The notes under the pieces were generated by a model. It worked only from the letters and a program-made list of their open reading frames with translations, made no database searches and had not been told where the DNA came from. Made by a program: the position numbers and the translations under genes. From the NCBI GenBank assembly GCA_947453965.1, contig CANGIQ010000004.1:62001-126000 (forward strand): 64,000 nucleotides of DNA. The letters are read 5' to 3'. Source of the stretch: Comamonadaceae bacterium (lineage in GTDB: Bacteria > Pseudomonadota > Gammaproteobacteria > Burkholderiales > Burkholderiaceae_C). Shown in pieces: positions 1-6,858 of the stretch (positions are counted from its first letter, which is position 1; each line of letters begins with the position of its first letter).

Positions 1-82
1 ATTAGAAGTTAGAACTTATGATTCTTCATCGCTCTATACTTATCAAGTCAATACGTCGTAGTTAAGCCATCTTGAGGTTTCA

Positions 83-1177
83 ATGCAAGTTTCTGTTCTA
101 GTTAAATTACTCTCAATCATGAGTGTGAATACCTCTGCCGAAACTGCAATTACTGCACGTGATATCGCGCTTAAATGGGATAAGCGTTATCCAGATGGTG
201 AACCGGATGAAAGCACGCTGCGGCAAGTTCAACGGTATATGAATGAGCTGACCGCGTCCATAGAAGACTTGCCTCCTCTGATTGAGTATGAAGAGTTTCA
301 AATCTCAATCACGCCAAAGCTTCAAGGAAAAAAGGCCAGAGAAGTCCGTCACTTCTATTTGCCACCAGACAGAGTTGTCAAGTGGTTTATGACAGAACAG
401 GCGGCGGTTAACCTTCTATTAACTGGTCAAGTGGTTGGTCAATCTTTGGGCGGTATAAAGCAGCTTGGCTTGAATCGCGTTAAGTCGATTGCCAGCGATG
501 TCATTGATTTAAAGAAGTCTGATGAACTTCGACGAATTGCAAGCAGTATCAGAATTGTTCAGGACGGCTTAGGCCGTTTGCGCGCCACTATTCGTCCAGG
601 CATCCTTCAAACCATGATGGATAGCATCATTTCAGACAAGGCTGTATCTTTTACCTATGTGAAGCCCAATGGTGAGTCTAAAAAGCATACGGTTAATCCA
701 TTGGGTTTGGTGAGCAAGGACGGTGCTATTTATCTGATTGCCACGAAGGGCAGTGATCCCAAAAAAATTCACTTCGCATTGCAACGGGTTATTGACGCGG
801 ATGTTGCAAGTCGATCGCCGAGAATTGTTCCATTAGGTTTCGATCTTGACCAATACATCGAGGAAACGCATCAATTGAGTCATCCTATTGGTGAGGGGAT
901 TCAACTTGTTCTAGAAGCGAATGATGAAGCACTTTTTCATTTCGTAGAACGGCCTCTTGCGCGTACGCAAAAGATTGAAAAATCACGTACAAAAAAATGG
1001 CACAAGATTACTGCTGAAATTCCAAACACAATACTTCTTATGCCATTTTTAATGAGCATGCTTAAAAACGTTCGTGTAATTGAGCCGCTTTCACTTCGAA
1101 AAGAAGTTGCCAATATGATTGAACAGATGAAGGAAAACTACTCGATTCCAGGCGCTGATGAGCTGCACCGTATATAG
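83..1177 (+). CDS. WYL-domain transcriptional regulator
   Basis: Probable DNA-binding regulator of the WYL family, in which an N-terminal helix-turn-helix region is followed by a ligand-sensing WYL domain. The WYL segment is visible around residues 190-235, with the run VNPLGLVSKDGAIYLIA followed by a basic, R/H-rich stretch. The N-terminal 100 residues look like a winged-helix part (STLRQVQRYMNEL). The start at 83 is supported by a GAGG Shine-Dalgarno sequence 8 bases upstream; a second ATG lies 12 codons in. It is the leftmost gene of the AT-rich island and points toward it. WYL proteins often repress defence genes, so control of the four neighbours is a reasonable inference, not shown. Confidence 0.85.
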   Translation: MQVSVLVKLLSIMSVNTSAETAITARDIALKWDKRYPDGEPDESTLRQVQRYMNELTASIEDLPPLIEYEEFQISITPKLQGKKAREVRHFYLPPDRVVKWFMTEQAAVNLLLTGQVVGQSLGGIKQLGLNRVKSIASDVIDLKKSDELRRIASSIRIVQDGLGRLRATIRPGILQTMMDSIISDKAVSFTYVKPNGESKKHTVNPLGLVSKDGAIYLIATKGSDPKKIHFALQRVIDADVASRSPRIVPLGFDLDQYIEETHQLSHPIGEGIQLVLEANDEALFHFVERPLARTQKIEKSRTKKWHKITAEIPNTILLMPFLMSMLKNVRVIEPLSLRKEVANMIEQMKENYSIPGADELHRI

Positions 1178-1200
1178 AAGTGCAGGCATGATCTGAATCA

Positions 1201-1809
1201 TCATGCTGATTTTTTCAAGTAAGGGCCATAGACTTCAGCCGGCGCAAATCCTGCACAGAGTTGCTCGATGATATGGTCGCGAAAGTTGCGGACCTCTGGC
1301 GATAAGTTAGAGCGGTTCGCTGTGTAAAACTCCCACATTATTTCGGAAGCTTTAACTTTTGAAATCTTGATTGTTTTTTGAAGGCGGATTGCATTGGCAG
1401 CTTTTGCTTTATGGATGTGGTCCCAAAATTCGGGTAGCTTAGCTTCCCAATTAAAGGCATAACAGATTTGACGCTCTTGTTCGCAGTCGAATTTGTTTTT
1501 GATGCCTTCGCCGCACTCACCTTTGCGACCTACGATCAAAGTTGAGATACGTGGCAACTTCGCTTGCTCAGCAAAGTCAAAAATTACACCCAACACACGG
1601 CCTGTTCGTACAGGAATCATTTTCTGAATGTCAGTGTCATTTGGATGACGCTGTTTTGCCAGTTCGATCAACTCTTTGTATGTCAGCACTGTCTTATTTT
1701 TAGCTGTCTCGATCAAAATTGGATAAAACAGACTTGCCAAATGCAAGCTTAAGTCTGTATGAAAATTTTGCTCACTAGAGTCAACGGAGAGAGGGGAGAA
1801 GTTAGTCAT
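1201..1809 (-). CDS. Hypothetical protein of the AT-rich island
   Basis: A soluble protein of about 202 residues that I do not recognise. The ORF track begins at a TTG (1872), but the ATG at 1809 has an AAGGA five bases upstream and leaves the shared regulatory box (1865-1882) outside the gene, so I prefer it. A segment reading LTYKELIELA, then VRTGRVLGVIFDFAEQ and LPRISTLIVG, vaguely resembles the winged-helix part of alkyltransferase-like proteins; this is only a pattern impression and the reactive PCHR motif is absent. It is downstream of the FtsH-like gene on the same strand, with a 105-base gap carrying its own box, so it may have its own promoter. Confidence 0.7.
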   Translation of the reverse strand: MTNFSPLSVDSSEQNFHTDLSLHLASLFYPILIETAKNKTVLTYKELIELAKQRHPNDTDIQKMIPVRTGRVLGVIFDFAEQAKLPRISTLIVGRKGECGEGIKNKFDCEQERQICYAFNWEAKLPEFWDHIHKAKAANAIRLQKTIKISKVKASEIMWEFYTANRSNLSPEVRNFRDHIIEQLCAGFAPAEVYGPYLKKSA

Positions 1810-1864
1810 GTCATTCCTTAAATCAGGGTTGCTTTGCGATTCATTTGATAGTTTTTCAGATGGT

Positions 1865-1882
1865 GGCGACAAAAGATGTCGT
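1865..1882 (-). promoter_or_regulatory. Island box 1 (ACGACWKYWTTTGTCGCY)
   Basis: On the minus strand this reads ACGACATCTTTTGTCGCC. It contains the inverted repeat CGACA-N5-TGTCG. It lies 55 bases upstream of the ATG at 1809 of the small hypothetical gene, in the same orientation as that gene. Nearly the same 18-mer occurs upstream of two other island genes, so it is a candidate operator or activator site for the island regulator. Confidence 0.65.
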
Positions 1883-1914
1883 TTTATCGAATGTTTATCG
1901 ATTTTTCCATGTGT

Positions 1915-3345
1915 CTACGCAACAAGAGAGAAAGGACCTCCAGGTTTTTTCATTGATTCCCTTTGCAACTGAATGATTGATTCAAAGTCTTTTCGTGTAA
2001 GAAACGTTTTTTCATTCAATGTCTCTGCAATCAGCTTTAAAAGCTGATGGTGGGCTTTAAAGAGGCTCAGTACCATCTCAAATTGAGTAGACAGGTATTC
2101 GCGAATCATGATTTCTACATGGGCGTATTCTGATGGCGTTGGCTTGCCGAGCACGACTTCAAGATTTGATGCGGCTTGCGCATCAGTGGAAAGATCTGGT
2201 GAGTGCCCCCACTTACCAAATAATCCGCCTGCAAGTCGAGTTGCAGATTCAAGGTCTGATTTGGAGCCACTTGCGCTTGTTTGCGTCGCTCCAAGTAAAT
2301 AGTGCTCTGCTACACGTCCACCGAGTGCGACACGAATCTTGTGCGTGATGTCTCGATAGGTCAAGTCATCACTGATTCGTTCATGATCGTCATAGCCACG
2401 AACGACAACGCCATGTGTTCCACCACGCTTTATGACACTACAGTATTCAGGCGGTGTTTTGTCTTTGGAGTCCAAATAAACAACAAGGGCGTGTCCAGCT
2501 TCATGAATAGCGTGACGCTGGCGAATTTCAGGTGGATCTAATTGATCATCGCATTCGCTAATTCCATACACAGCCAGCATCACCAAGTCATTAAATGTGA
2601 CTTTTCGCTTCTCTGACCACGCGCGACGCTGGAGTGATTTTTGAACAATGCTGCGGCGACGGTAGTCATTCAATTCATGCCGAACTAGACATCCGACACG
2701 TTTCAGATTGGATTGATACGACTCATCAACAATGCCAATACCCGTTTCCTCCAGAAATGCCTGGGCAGTTTCTTCATAACCAATTTCAGGTATTTCAATG
2801 CGCCGATCGAAGAGGCCAGATTGACGTAACTGCTTGTCCATTTGGGATACAGACTGCAATCCTGTTACAAAAACAATAGGTTGCTGCAGAATCCCTGCTC
2901 TAAGGCGTTTTGCGAGCTCTTTGCGAAATTCATAGGCCTTGTCTTCATCGTGCGTTGGACATTCAGGCCACTCATGATCATCCTCGTCATCGTTCGCACC
3001 ATTTTTAAGCCAAGCACCGGGTTCAAGGTAGATGAGAACAGGTTCATTGCCAGCTAAGACATCGAGCCACTCGCCAAAATTACTGACTTGATCATGAGCG
3101 ATGATATGCAACTGCATACCTGCCTCACCAGCAATGTAATGGACCATTGTTTGAATTGCTTCAACATCGTGATGTTCGATGACTACTGCATGCCCAATCA
3201 TTTCCCATTCATGTCGGAAAAAGCTAGAGCCAGTTGCTGTCTTGATGGCATCTTTCCAACGCTTGATGGCACTTGTCTCGGGAAGAAAATTCCAAAATGT
3301 ACACCCCAAATTTGCTGTCGATATTTGTGGAATAGTTTTTTTCAT
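1915..3345 (-). CDS. FtsH-like M41 zinc protease with degenerate AAA domain
   Basis: The C-terminal half is an FtsH-type M41 peptidase. The zinc motif HEAGH lies at residues 281-285, the third ligand is probably D364 in SKSDLESAT, and GGRVAEHYLLG matches the family's conserved block. The N-terminal half keeps an AAA-like end (FVTGLQ...LFDRRIEIPEI, the arginine-finger region), but no Walker A sequence is present and the Walker B position reads LIYLEPG. No transmembrane segment is obvious. Known FtsH proteins need ATP to unfold substrates, so this one probably cleaves loose substrates or uses a partner. The start has AAGGAG seven bases upstream. Low G+C like its neighbours. Confidence 0.85.
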   Translation of the reverse strand: MKKTIPQISTANLGCTFWNFLPETSAIKRWKDAIKTATGSSFFRHEWEMIGHAVVIEHHDVEAIQTMVHYIAGEAGMQLHIIAHDQVSNFGEWLDVLAGNEPVLIYLEPGAWLKNGANDDEDDHEWPECPTHDEDKAYEFRKELAKRLRAGILQQPIVFVTGLQSVSQMDKQLRQSGLFDRRIEIPEIGYEETAQAFLEETGIGIVDESYQSNLKRVGCLVRHELNDYRRRSIVQKSLQRRAWSEKRKVTFNDLVMLAVYGISECDDQLDPPEIRQRHAIHEAGHALVVYLDSKDKTPPEYCSVIKRGGTHGVVVRGYDDHERISDDLTYRDITHKIRVALGGRVAEHYLLGATQTSASGSKSDLESATRLAGGLFGKWGHSPDLSTDAQAASNLEVVLGKPTPSEYAHVEIMIREYLSTQFEMVLSLFKAHHQLLKLIAETLNEKTFLTRKDFESIIQLQRESMKKPGGPFSLVA

Positions 3346-3387
3346 GTATCGCTCCTTTGTCTGTGAAGATGCACGGTAAATGAATTA

Positions 3388-3405
3388 AGCGACAAATACT
3401 GTCGT
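3388..3405 (-). promoter_or_regulatory. Island box 2
   Basis: Minus strand reading ACGACAGTATTTGTCGCT, containing CGACA-N5-TGTCG. It is 42 bases upstream of the FtsH-like start codon and points the same way. It shares the 203-base divergent intergenic region with box 3. Confidence 0.65.
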
Positions 3406-3478
3406 CAAAAATGAAAGCCTTTTTGAGGCGGCATTGAGAACCCTAATTTCGCCGGAAATTCGGATTCCATAAATATTG

Positions 3479-3496
3479 ACGACTTCTTTTGTCGCC
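3479..3496 (+). promoter_or_regulatory. Island box 3
   Basis: Plus strand reading ACGACTTCTTTTGTCGCC, which differs from box 1 at one position. It is 52 bases upstream of the ATG at 3549 of the lipoprotein gene and has the same orientation as that gene. Confidence 0.65.
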
Positions 3497-3548
3497 TTCA
3501 TTTCTCACAATAGTTTTTGTTAACAACTTAACGAGTTGGGGGAAAGCG

Positions 3549-4616
3549 ATGTCCGCAGTAAAGCCAAGTACATGCTCTTTTAGGAGGCGCAAACTTTTCG
3601 ACGCTCATGCGCTCTTGTGCATTTTTATTGCGACGTCAATTCTTTTCCTCTGCGGTTGTGCCACGACGCCAGTGACCAGCCGTAATGCAAGTACACCCGT
3701 ACGGGCCACAGGTGTTGGATCAACAATGGAAAATGCAAAAGAGAATGCGTTTCGCCAAGCGATTGAAAACAAAATTGGTGTTCTCGTTCTCAGCGAGAAA
3801 GAAATTAAGAATTTCAAGCTGAACAAAGATGACATCTTGACGTTTAGTGCTGGATTTATTGATGACTACAACGTGATTAGCAAAGAAAAGTTAGCTGCAA
3901 AATGGGTTGTAACTATCGATGCATGGGTTTCTGGTAGCCGCCTTGCAAACAAGATTACAGCAATCAGCTCGGTGGATGGTTCGATCAGCGGAAAAAAAGC
4001 AGCTGATCGATTCGATTCATTCATCAAACAAAAGCAACAAGCGGATCGGTTGCTACAAAAAATGATTTCTGGCTTTCCTGAAGATGCGATTCAGGTTAGA
4101 TTTCTCCGGACCGAGATGAAATTTGATCCAGACCGACGTGCGCAGGTTTTAATTTATTTTGAAACTGCATGGAGTAAGGCTTACATTACTTCACTCTTGG
4201 AAATGCTTGCACTTCTCCAAGATACAACTTATGGAAATGGGTTTGTTGGTGTCGTAAATGTTAGTCACAAAAAACCAGATGACTGGTTCGGAAGCCTTGA
4301 TACTTTTTATTTTTTAGATCGTCATTTATTCAATACCTTGTATAACCAACTAAATAACACCAAAATTGCTGTGCGTTTAAAAATTCGAGATGGCCGAACG
4401 GTCGTGCATGAAGACTGCTGGCCGCTCGACAATCAGTTCATTACCTATGGTTATGGAAGTCAACTTGGGATTTTGGGCAATCGCATCTTTGAATCTAAGA
4501 TTCAAATGGAAATTCCGTATGGCTCGTCTGCGCATCGCGTCTTAGAAAGTGCGAGTAGCATCACACTTTCTATTGAATCTGCAGACCGTTGTAGTCGCTC
4601 TAAGACAAAGCGCTAA
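3549..4616 (+). CDS. LPP20/FlgT-N-like outer lipoprotein
   Basis: A predicted lipoprotein of 355 residues. The chosen ATG at 3549 follows a GGGGGA stretch and gives a standard signal peptide: a basic N-terminus (FRRRK), a hydrophobic core and the lipobox LCGC with the lipidated Cys at residue 37. The track start at 3489 would add 20 residues and is less likely. Just after the Cys, the segment ATGVGSTMENAKENAFRQAI then DDILTFSAGFIDDY resembles the LPP20 / FlgT N-terminal fold, found in surface lipoproteins and flagellar proteins. The remaining 200 residues are unrecognised. No flagellar genes are near, so its role here is unknown. It is divergent from the protease gene. Confidence 0.7.
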   Translation: MSAVKPSTCSFRRRKLFDAHALLCIFIATSILFLCGCATTPVTSRNASTPVRATGVGSTMENAKENAFRQAIENKIGVLVLSEKEIKNFKLNKDDILTFSAGFIDDYNVISKEKLAAKWVVTIDAWVSGSRLANKITAISSVDGSISGKKAADRFDSFIKQKQQADRLLQKMISGFPEDAIQVRFLRTEMKFDPDRRAQVLIYFETAWSKAYITSLLEMLALLQDTTYGNGFVGVVNVSHKKPDDWFGSLDTFYFLDRHLFNTLYNQLNNTKIAVRLKIRDGRTVVHEDCWPLDNQFITYGYGSQLGILGNRIFESKIQMEIPYGSSAHRVLESASSITLSIESADRCSRSKTKR

Positions 4617-4658
4617 TTTGCTAACTTATAAGTAGAGAAATTCAGTGCTAAATTTGAT

Positions 4659-4668
4659 TTTTGTCGCT
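4659..4668 (+). promoter_or_regulatory. Half island box upstream of DUF2779 gene
   Basis: TTTTGTCGCT matches the right half of boxes 1-3, but the left ACGAC half is missing. It sits 48 bases upstream of the ATG at 4717, the same distance class and orientation as the full boxes. Confidence 0.4.
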
Positions 4669-4716
4669 TTTGCTTTTAATGTGTGAAAGCTTTTTTTTCA
4701 AAATAAAGGTGCGTTA

Positions 4717-6858
4717 ATGTCAACAGCTTCTAAGGCTCGTTATTTGAGCAAATCGCGTTTTAAATTGGCATTGGAATGCCCAACTAGGCTTTTTTACGCT
4801 AAAGAGTCAAATGGGTATTTCGACAAAAATCAAGATAACGATTTCCTACACGCACTGGCTGATGGCGGAAATCAGGTTGGCGAACTTGCAAAATTTAAAT
4901 ACCATCCAAATCCAATTGGCGAAGCTATTACCGTGGAGCCGCTTGGATATGAGGAAGCACTTTCACAAACTCGATTGAAGATGTCTACTTCGACTCGCAC
5001 TGTGATTGCTGAGGCCGCATTGCTGCATGAGACATTTTTTGTTCGTGTTGATATTCTGATTCATGATCCTGTCGCTAAGACAATCGAGATCATCGAGGTG
5101 AAGTCAAAAAGTATTGATGATGCGACCATTGCGTCACGCTTCAAAAATGATAAAGGAAACTTTCAAGCGAAATGGCTCCCTTATCTCTATGACGTCACAT
5201 TTCAATCAGAAGTCGCTAGGCGTTGTTTCCCTGAGTACAAAATTATTTCTAAGTTGTTGTTGCTAGATTCTGATGAAGTTTGCGACATTGATGCCTTGCA
5301 TCAAAAATTCAAAATCGTCACGGTGAAAGATCCTCAGTCTGGTAAGGCGCGCGTTCGCATTGAAACGGCACCTGATTTAACGCGTGATGATTTGGGCCGA
5401 TTGAATTTCTTGCGTGAAGTTCTTGTTAGCGACATCGTTCATGAATTGCGTGCTAAACCGATTGACAACACTCCGCACGTTCCTTCTGAACATGGCAGGG
5501 ATTTGAACACCTTCATGAGTTGGGTAGGACGCCTTCAAGCAGAAGGCGCTTTATATTTCGGAGGCGTTTCCAAGGCATGTAAGTCATGTCAATTCAGAGC
5601 AGGTCCAAATGAGCCGAAGAAGAGTGGTGTTCATGACTGTTGGCAAACTGCTTTGAGTCAAGGGATGCTTGATTCCGGACGTGATATCGAAGATCGTAGT
5701 GAGCCACTTTCCATTGATATTTGGGGTGGGGGTTCTGGGTCGGTCAGTATGGCCGATCGGGTGCTTGAGGCGCGACGTGCATTTCTTGCTCATGTCCAAG
5801 AGGATGATGTTCGTCCAAAAAATCAAAGTAATGAAATTGGGATGTCTTCGCTTGAACGACGGATGTTTCAGGTGAAGGCAGCCAATGAAAAAACAAATGT
5901 TGTTGAAATTAATGAGGACGTCTTGAGTGCCATAGATAATTGGGAGTGGCCTTTGCACATGATTGACTTTGAAACTTCAGCACCAGCAATTCCTTTCTTT
6001 AAGGATATGCATCCATATCAAACTTTGGCGTTCCAGTTCAGTCACCACATCATGGAAAAGTTGCCTAGCGGCAAGGTGAAAATTCGTCATGCGAATCAAT
6101 GGATCAGCACGAAGGCAGAGTCATTTCCAAGTATTGAGTTTGTTAGGCAGTTACGAAACGCCTTGATGCCAGGTGGACGCCTAGTTGGTACAGTTTTTCG
6201 ATATCACAATCATGAAAACTCTGTGCTGCGCAGCCTGCGTAAGACAATCCTTGATGAAGGACAGTCTTTGGTGCCTGATATGGAGGCCCTGGTTGAGTTC
6301 ATTGATCTGATTACTAAATCAACGAGCTCTGAGGCATCGTTTGAAGGTGAGAAACAAATGGTTGACTTGCACCGTTTGATTCAAAAGGGTTATTACTCTA
6401 GCGTGGCCGGTGGCAGCATTTCTTTGAAATACATGCTCCCCGCTGTACTTCATGACGCGCCAGCAGTTTCAGATTTTTATCGTAAGCCAAAGATCTATGG
6501 AGCGGGTCTTGTTATCGATAGCCTTAACTTTAATCAGGAAGGGCATGTCTGGCTGCAAGCAGATAAAGGAAATGATCCTTACAAAACATTGCCAGGTATT
6601 TTTGGCCCAGACTATGGAGAGCTTGATGCCATCATTGCCCGTCTTGCGGGAGACGAAGAGGGGGAAGATGGTGCGATCAATCAAGGCGGTCTGGCCATGA
6701 CGGCCTATAACTACACTCAATTTACCAGCTTGCAAGATGCTGATCGTGAACGAATTCAATCCGCACTTTTGCGTTACTGTGAGCTCGATACTTTGGCTAT
6801 GGTTATTTTGGTGCAGGGTGTGATGGAGTTGCGTGGTACCCCGCTAACTATTCAATAA
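4717..6858 (+). CDS. DUF2779 protein: Cas4-like Fe-S nuclease plus DEDD exonuclease
   Basis: A two-domain nuclease candidate of 713 residues. Residues 1-310 look Cas4/AddB-like: C21 near the N-terminus and C288, C291, C308 could hold a 4Fe-4S cluster, and D112, E127 and K129 (IEIIEVKSK) form a PD-(D/E)XK site. From about residue 410 a DEDD-type 3'-5' exonuclease fold begins with HMIDFET (D417, E419) and ends with YCELDTLAM (D691), as in DUF2779. The family is widespread but its function is not settled; DNA or RNA processing, and defence, are inferences. A half copy of the island box lies upstream. All catalytic residues I can place are intact. Confidence 0.85.
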   Translation: MSTASKARYLSKSRFKLALECPTRLFYAKESNGYFDKNQDNDFLHALADGGNQVGELAKFKYHPNPIGEAITVEPLGYEEALSQTRLKMSTSTRTVIAEAALLHETFFVRVDILIHDPVAKTIEIIEVKSKSIDDATIASRFKNDKGNFQAKWLPYLYDVTFQSEVARRCFPEYKIISKLLLLDSDEVCDIDALHQKFKIVTVKDPQSGKARVRIETAPDLTRDDLGRLNFLREVLVSDIVHELRAKPIDNTPHVPSEHGRDLNTFMSWVGRLQAEGALYFGGVSKACKSCQFRAGPNEPKKSGVHDCWQTALSQGMLDSGRDIEDRSEPLSIDIWGGGSGSVSMADRVLEARRAFLAHVQEDDVRPKNQSNEIGMSSLERRMFQVKAANEKTNVVEINEDVLSAIDNWEWPLHMIDFETSAPAIPFFKDMHPYQTLAFQFSHHIMEKLPSGKVKIRHANQWISTKAESFPSIEFVRQLRNALMPGGRLVGTVFRYHNHENSVLRSLRKTILDEGQSLVPDMEALVEFIDLITKSTSSEASFEGEKQMVDLHRLIQKGYYSSVAGGSISLKYMLPAVLHDAPAVSDFYRKPKIYGAGLVIDSLNFNQEGHVWLQADKGNDPYKTLPGIFGPDYGELDAIIARLAGDEEGEDGAINQGGLAMTAYNYTQFTSLQDADRERIQSALLRYCELDTLAMVILVQGVMELRGTPLTIQ

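What the first reader, a model, noticed from the sequence alone, without database searches (positions are those of the whole stretch)
83..6858. AT-rich five-gene island, candidate undescribed defence or stress system
A WYL regulator, a small unknown protein, an FtsH-like protease with a dead AAA domain, an LPP20-like lipoprotein and a Cas4-like/DEDD nuclease sit together in low-G+C DNA. WYL regulators and PD-(D/E)XK nucleases are common in phage defence islands. Protease plus nuclease plus surface lipoprotein is not a combination I can match to a named system.
Basis: inference. Interest (0 to 1): 0.78.

Follow-up and report, generated by a model that had tools for sequence, protein, structure and literature searches.

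The report
WYL-controlled nuclease, ATPase and protease island
Next to a tRNA gene this bacterium carries a foreign DNA island whose protease, lipoprotein and neighbouring genes share one regulatory DNA site; the same site marks related nuclease and ATPase genes on plasmids and in other species, which points to an undescribed, switch-controlled system, most likely for fighting phages or plasmids.

Summary
The five genes are real, but they are the right half of a 13.9-kb, 43% G+C island of ten genes that starts at the 3' end of tRNA-Ser(GCT) and is cut by the window edge. Upstream lie a GmrSD-type gene (PADLOC HEC-05), a second WYL regulator, a double-AAA ATPase (AAA2), a small protein (unkA) and a lipoprotein. 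The strict five-gene set was found nowhere else, but parts recur: WYL lies within 6 kb of DUF2779 at 11 of 20 loci (0.16 expected), AAA2-DUF2779-WYL operons occur in several genomes and plasmids, and a prophage carries M41, GIY-YIG, WYL and DUF2779 together. The strongest link is a palindrome, GCGACA-N5-TGTCGC, 52-67 bp before unkA, unkB, M41 and the window lipoprotein. A matrix built only from other genomes ranks these four sites first in 84 kb; the same site precedes AAA2, DUF2779 and WYL genes in other beta- and gammaproteobacteria. Its five-base spacer matches BrxR (WYL) operators. M41 keeps its protease motif but lacks Walker A in all relatives. I read this as a mobile WYL-controlled regulon, most likely anti-phage or anti-plasmid; a DNA-damage role remains open. 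No function was tested.

The parts
83..1177 (+). WYL2 regulator (wHTH by eye + WYL + WCX), the likely reader of the operators
   Evidence: Pfam WYL E=6.7e-12, WCX E=3.2e-7; full-length homolog (34%) at a long-DUF2779 locus in G105
1201..1872 (-). unkB, 223 aa from the TTG; ATG start more likely at 1809; function unknown
   Evidence: homolog (33%, E=1e-19) in the M41-ClpS operon of G019
1867..1881 (.). operator copy 2, CGACAAAAGATGTCG, perfect, centre 65 bp before the unkB ATG
1915..3345 (-). M41 metalloprotease with degenerate, P-loop-less AAA domain
3390..3404 (.). operator copy 3, CGACAAATACTGTCG, perfect, centre 52 bp before M41
3480..3494 (.). operator copy 4, CGACTTCTTTTGTCG, one mismatch, centre 62 bp before the LP2 ATG at 3549
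3489..4616 (+). LP2, putative lipoprotein (ATG at 3549, lipobox LCGC); no LPP20 match
4717..6858 (+). DUF2779 nuclease, long subfamily: Cas4-like PD-(D/E)XK with four conserved Cys plus DEDD-type exonuclease
1..82 (+). window edge; island continues left to tRNA-Ser: HEC-05, WYL1, AAA2, unkA (with perfect operator copy 1 at C4:60470), LPP1

Best explanation
A horizontally acquired, WYL-controlled regulon sits behind tRNA-Ser. Shown by sequence: ten low-G+C genes; four copies of one palindromic operator before unkA, unkB, M41 and LP2; the same operator before AAA2, DUF2779 and WYL genes elsewhere; intact nuclease, protease and AAA2 ATPase motifs; a dead ATPase site in M41. Inferred: a WYL dimer (probably WYL2) binds GCGACA-N5-TGTCGC near the promoters and represses the genes. 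During phage or plasmid entry the WYL domain senses a nucleic-acid or nucleotide signal and releases the promoters. DUF2779 then degrades foreign DNA, AAA2 remodels or unfolds protein targets, and M41, which cannot use ATP itself, degrades proteins handed over by AAA2 or another unfoldase. The lipoproteins would act at the envelope.
For: Operators: 3 perfect + 1 near-perfect copies, all in the island, 0.03 expected; matrix from 17 sites of other genomes ranks them 1-4 of 84 kb; 0 perfect sites in 1.44 Mb of control DNA; AAA2 genes 15/36 against 41/686 other genes, P=5.5e-9. Linkage: WYL near DUF2779 at 11/20 loci against 0.16 expected; AAA2-DUF2779-WYL operons. Prophage copy with M41, WYL and DUF2779. 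Neighbours include BREX, type I R-M, HEC-05. Operator spacer of 5 bp as in BrxR sites.
Against: No functional data. The strict five-gene set was seen once. M41 does not accompany AAA2 elsewhere and can stand alone. The window's DUF2779 is the long subfamily, not the one in the AAA2 operons. Two long-DUF2779 relatives closest to it (G132; G087 on a short contig) show no WYL beside them. Perfect operators are missing in Alphaproteobacteria. Loci are not phylogenetically independent, so P values are too small. No integrase or att repeat was found.
Confidence: 0.5

Rival explanations
1. A mobile WYL-controlled DNA-damage or general stress regulon rather than phage defence: WYL senses ssDNA or damage products, DUF2779 acts in repair, AAA2 and M41 in protein quality control.
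For: The WYL regulator DriD activates a DNA damage response by binding ssDNA (PMC12340889, abstract). Neighbours elsewhere include SOS peptidases, UmuD and Y-family polymerase, RtcB, Sir2, macro-domain and ADP-ribosylglycohydrolase genes.
Against: Patchy presence, prophage and plasmid carriage and frequent restriction/BREX neighbours fit conflict with mobile DNA better.
Confidence: 0.3
2. Several independent cargo genes piled up at a tRNA hotspot (HEC-05, a solitary DUF2779, a solitary M41) with no common function.
For: Content after tRNA-Ser differs in every relative; M41 and long DUF2779 each stand alone in G132.
Against: Four shared operators in front of unkA, unkB, M41 and LP2, the same as those in unrelated genomes.
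Confidence: 0.15
3. The repeated palindrome is a transcription terminator or RNA hairpin, not an operator.
For: Two copies score as terminator-like.
Against: T-runs are not on a consistent side; all four lie 52-67 bp before start codons; the same letters recur in distant genomes while the flanks differ.
Confidence: 0.03

Closest known systems
BrxR/CapW WYL repressors of BREX and CBASS islands (PMC9122601, PMC9122588)
   Same: WYL regulator, palindromic operators near promoters, 5-bp spacer as in BrxR sites, defence-type neighbours
   Different: Other operator sequence shared by several promoters of one island; no BREX or CBASS genes here; effectors are DUF2779, AAA2 and M41
FtsH / M41 AAA proteases
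   Same: M41 domain with HExGH and FtsH-like fold over both halves
   Different: No Walker A, no transmembrane part seen, short; paired with ClpS and TPR genes in two relatives
COG2251/TM0106-type nucleases and DUF2779 (PMC3985635)
   Same: PD-(D/E)XK domain plus RNase H-like 3'-5' exonuclease; DUF2779 is one of the predicted exonucleases
   Different: No helicase or AAA part in the same protein; AAA ATPase is a separate gene in AAA2 operons
IetAS
   Same: AAA ATPase together with a protease; AAA2 is nearest to IetA among PADLOC models (E=1e-40)
   Different: AAA2 has two AAA domains, the protease is M41 and not an IetS-type serine protease, and the two are not paired elsewhere
FtsH-containing MoxR-vWA ternary systems (PMC7159879)
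   Same: FtsH-type AAA domains, one inactive, in conflict loci; MoxR and VWA genes lie near M41 in G019
   Different: Those carry two AAA domains with the second active; here one dead AAA and a live M41; no MoxR-vWA pair in this island

Membership tests
WYL (BrxR/CapW-type) controlled defence island | WYL-domain regulator encoded in the island | tested here: met
   WYL1 and WYL2
WYL (BrxR/CapW-type) controlled defence island | Inverted-repeat operator before the controlled genes | tested here: met
   four copies, 5-bp spacer
WYL (BrxR/CapW-type) controlled defence island | Regulator binds the operator and controls expression | not testable with these tools
   needs gel shift and reporter assays
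WYL (BrxR/CapW-type) controlled defence island | Protects against phage | not testable with these tools
   needs phage challenge
FtsH ATP-dependent protease | Zinc protease motif HExxH | tested here: met
   HEAGH at 281, all seven relatives
FtsH ATP-dependent protease | Working AAA ATPase (Walker A and B) | tested here: not met
   no Walker A in any relative; NCBIfam FtsH score 65 against cut-off 600
DUF2779 (PF11074) | Match above the curated cut-off with catalytic residues kept | tested here: met
   64 bits against 23.3; invariant residues
IetAS | IetA-type ATPase with a partner IetS serine protease | tested here: not met
   double-AAA protein with only a domain-level IetA match; no serine protease family hit among the island proteins
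HEC-05 candidate (PADLOC) | Full-length match of the first island gene | tested here: met
   E=2.6e-226 over residues 1-577
LPP20 lipoprotein | Match to an LPP20 model | tested here: not met
   no LPP20 hit at E<=1 for either lipoprotein

The most novel reading that the evidence does not exclude
A widespread, undescribed mobile regulon, defined by the operator GCGACA-N5-TGTCGC and a WYL regulator, coordinates a double-AAA ATPase, a DUF2779 nuclease and exchangeable effectors (an externally powered or ATP-independent M41 protease, FtsZ-like and deacetylase-like proteins, lipoproteins) as one induced anti-phage or anti-plasmid programme.
Probability: 0.35. Interest if true: 0.82.

Novelty: new variant of a known kind. 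Interest (0 to 1): 0.66.

Why it matters
WYL regulators are known guards of defence islands, but few of their operators are known. Here one operator recurs in several families and links genes that no catalogue used here groups together. That gives a simple handle: scan genomes for the site to find the full regulon, and test one regulator and one DNA site at the bench. The M41 proteins with a dead ATPase and a live protease motif also raise a mechanistic question: what unfolds their substrates.

Tried and rejected
Single-sequence genome-contig scan with M41: one generic FtsH-like hit only. Phage, plasmid and IMG/VR searches with M41: no relative covering 80% of the query, mostly generic FtsH or AAA. 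tRNA 3'-end repeat at the right border, to prove integrase insertion: none, and no integrase seen. phr lies elsewhere in relatives, so the right border rests on G+C only. Literature on DUF2779 or M41 defence systems: nothing specific. My first gene caller gave spurious antisense ORFs in G+C-rich L015; that locus was read by hand. Operator test on alphaproteobacterial and Desulfosarcina plasmids failed for perfect sites. IetAS membership and the terminator reading were considered and rejected.

Full report
OBSERVATION. The five ORFs exist as described. Pfam gives WYL and WCX for the first, Peptidase_M41 without an AAA hit for the third, and DUF2779 for the fifth; the second and fourth match no family above cut-off. 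The window is G000:C4:62001-126000, so the DNA left of it could be read. The low-G+C block (0.433 against 0.592 left and 0.574 right) runs from the 3' end of tRNA-Ser(GCT) at C4:54825-54917 to about window 6860. DNA similarity with genus relatives stops at or just after that tRNA end, and what follows the tRNA differs between relatives. The photolyase block to the right lies elsewhere in relatives. The left half, outside the window, holds GmrSD_N/HEC-05 (PADLOC E=2.6e-226), a second WYL protein, a double-AAA ATPase here called AAA2 (both Walker A and B sets present), a small protein unkA and a lipoprotein LPP1.

THE PROTEASE. Full-length relatives of the M41 protein are rare: 3 of 61 genomes in the relatives set, 3 of 399 in the order and 2 of 301 in the family, own genome included. 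All seven proteins lack a Walker A motif and keep HExGH. A model from a six-sequence alignment (mean pLDDT 74) matches FtsH-family structures over both halves. In G019 and G027 a ClpS-like gene and a TPR gene precede it; G019 adds an unkB homolog and a DUF2779 gene. In G112 it lies inside a prophage beside the terminase gene, with GIY-YIG, WYL and DUF2779 genes running towards the portal gene (the phage genes were named by eye from sequence). In G132 one copy stands alone among chromosomal genes.

THE NUCLEASE. The long DUF2779 relatives share D112, E127-x-K129, four cysteines and D417-x-E419, the marks of a Cas4-like PD-(D/E)XK nuclease with a cysteine cluster plus a DEDD-type exonuclease; DUF2779 was predicted to be a 3'-5' exonuclease (PMC3985635). 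It occurs in 22 of 210 genomes of the order. In 18 such genomes, WYL genes lie within 6 kb at 11 of 20 DUF2779 loci against 0.16 expected; the P value of 4e-19 ignores shared ancestry, including a pair of near-identical loci in G196. The closest homolog of WYL2 found (34% over full length) lies at a long-DUF2779 locus in G105, with a GIY-YIG-like gene (by eye) and a single-AAA ATPase.

THE ATPASE. AAA2 relatives occur in 22 of 260 genomes of the order and on plasmids. AAA2 lies beside a short DUF2779 and a WYL gene in Rhodoferax antarcticus, Diaphorobacter HDW4B, G196 (two copies, with one gene between) and G248, and beside DUF2779 at contig ends in G229 and G278. AAA2 with WYL and other nucleases or helicases is seen in Pantoea, Leisingera, Fuscovulum, Novosphingobium and Desulfosarcina, and with DUF2779 in Sphingobium. 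Neighbours include BREX genes in Sphaerotilus, a type I R-M set in G151 and a DrmMII-like methylase in G267. The window's DUF2779 belongs to the longer subfamily, so the match to this operon is by family, not by closest orthology.

THE OPERATOR. A repeat search of the island showed one palindrome several times. Its core CGACA-N5-TGTCG occurs in perfect form three times in the 104 kb around the window, always in the island, plus one copy with one mismatch; shuffled island sequence gives 0.03 perfect copies. The sites lie before unkA, unkB, M41 and LP2. The same site turned up before AAA2, DUF2779 or WYL genes in other genomes, among them Rhodoferax, Sphaerotilus, Thiodictyon, Pseudomonas luteola, G196, G229, G267, G151, G236 and G074. 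A matrix from 17 of those foreign sites, with none from this genome, has the consensus aTGCGACA-N5-TGTCGCAt and ranks the four island sites first to fourth in 84 kb, at 52 to 67 bp from the start codons; in 420 kb of other DNA of this genome its best score is 17.2, between the third and fourth island sites. In 1.44 Mb of control DNA there is no perfect site. AAA2 genes carry a site (at most one mismatch) in 15 of 36 cases against 41 of 686 other genes, P=5.5e-9; the 'other' count includes divergent partners of the same sites. A one-mismatch copy lies in the divergent promoter of the prophage M41 and before the unkB homolog in G019. Sites also precede FtsZ-like and histone-deacetylase-like genes in AAA2 islands. 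The limit: the alphaproteobacterial and Desulfosarcina plasmids tested lack perfect sites; Novosphingobium and Pantoea have a near-copy at the AAA2 promoter.

READING. BrxR, a WYL repressor, binds inverted repeats of 10 to 11 bp with a 5-bp spacer (PMC9122601), and CapW dimers bind palindromes over the -10 site (PMC9122588). The spacer, the promoter position and the WYL gene at the loci make a WYL dimer the natural reader of this site. Repression relieved by an infection signal is inferred by analogy. The sequence supports co-regulation of unkA, unkB, M41 and LP2; LPP1, WYL2 and DUF2779 lie downstream on the same strands and may be co-transcribed, which was not tested. That DUF2779 cuts foreign DNA, and that AAA2 feeds M41, are hypotheses. 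The mobile, patchy setting and defence neighbours favour phage or plasmid defence; the ssDNA-sensing WYL activator DriD (PMC12340889) and stress-type neighbours keep a damage response open.

KNOWN OR NEW. PADLOC recognises HEC-05 and generic WYL, IetA-like and restriction models only. The papers held here name no DUF2779 defence system. I file it as a new variant of WYL-controlled islands, not as FtsH (ATPase feature not met) and not as IetAS. DefenseFinder could not be run.

Noticed in passing
L016:6820-15934 (G112): M41, GIY-YIG, WYL and DUF2779 genes sit as cargo between terminase and portal genes of a prophage.
   Followed up: partly
L101:8670-9860, L172:7733-8671, L180:543-1757: FtsZ-like tubulin-family genes lie next to AAA2, two of them sharing an operator-bearing intergenic region.
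   Followed up: partly
L172:694-1596, L176:15883-16782, L221, L224: Histone-deacetylase-like genes recur in these islands; two have the operator in front.
   Followed up: partly
L013:9561-9881, L014:7350-7691: A ClpS-like adaptor gene lies directly before the pseudo-AAA M41 gene in two relatives.
   Followed up: partly
L110-L129 (after tRNA-Ser in relatives); island starts at C4:54918: Content after tRNA-Ser(GCT) differs in each genus relative looked at: a variable integration spot without a visible integrase here.
   Followed up: partly
L101:14605-20583, L109:13024-18789, L378:7638-13494: After AAA2-WYL a similar three-gene set recurs: ~400-470 aa unknown, ~650 aa (phospholipase D-like in L101), SNF2/DEAD helicase.
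   Followed up: no
L215:11253-12518 and L014:2400-3170: Unknown protein (43% identical) shared by the G105 WYL2-DUF2779 locus and the G027 M41-ClpS locus.
   Followed up: no
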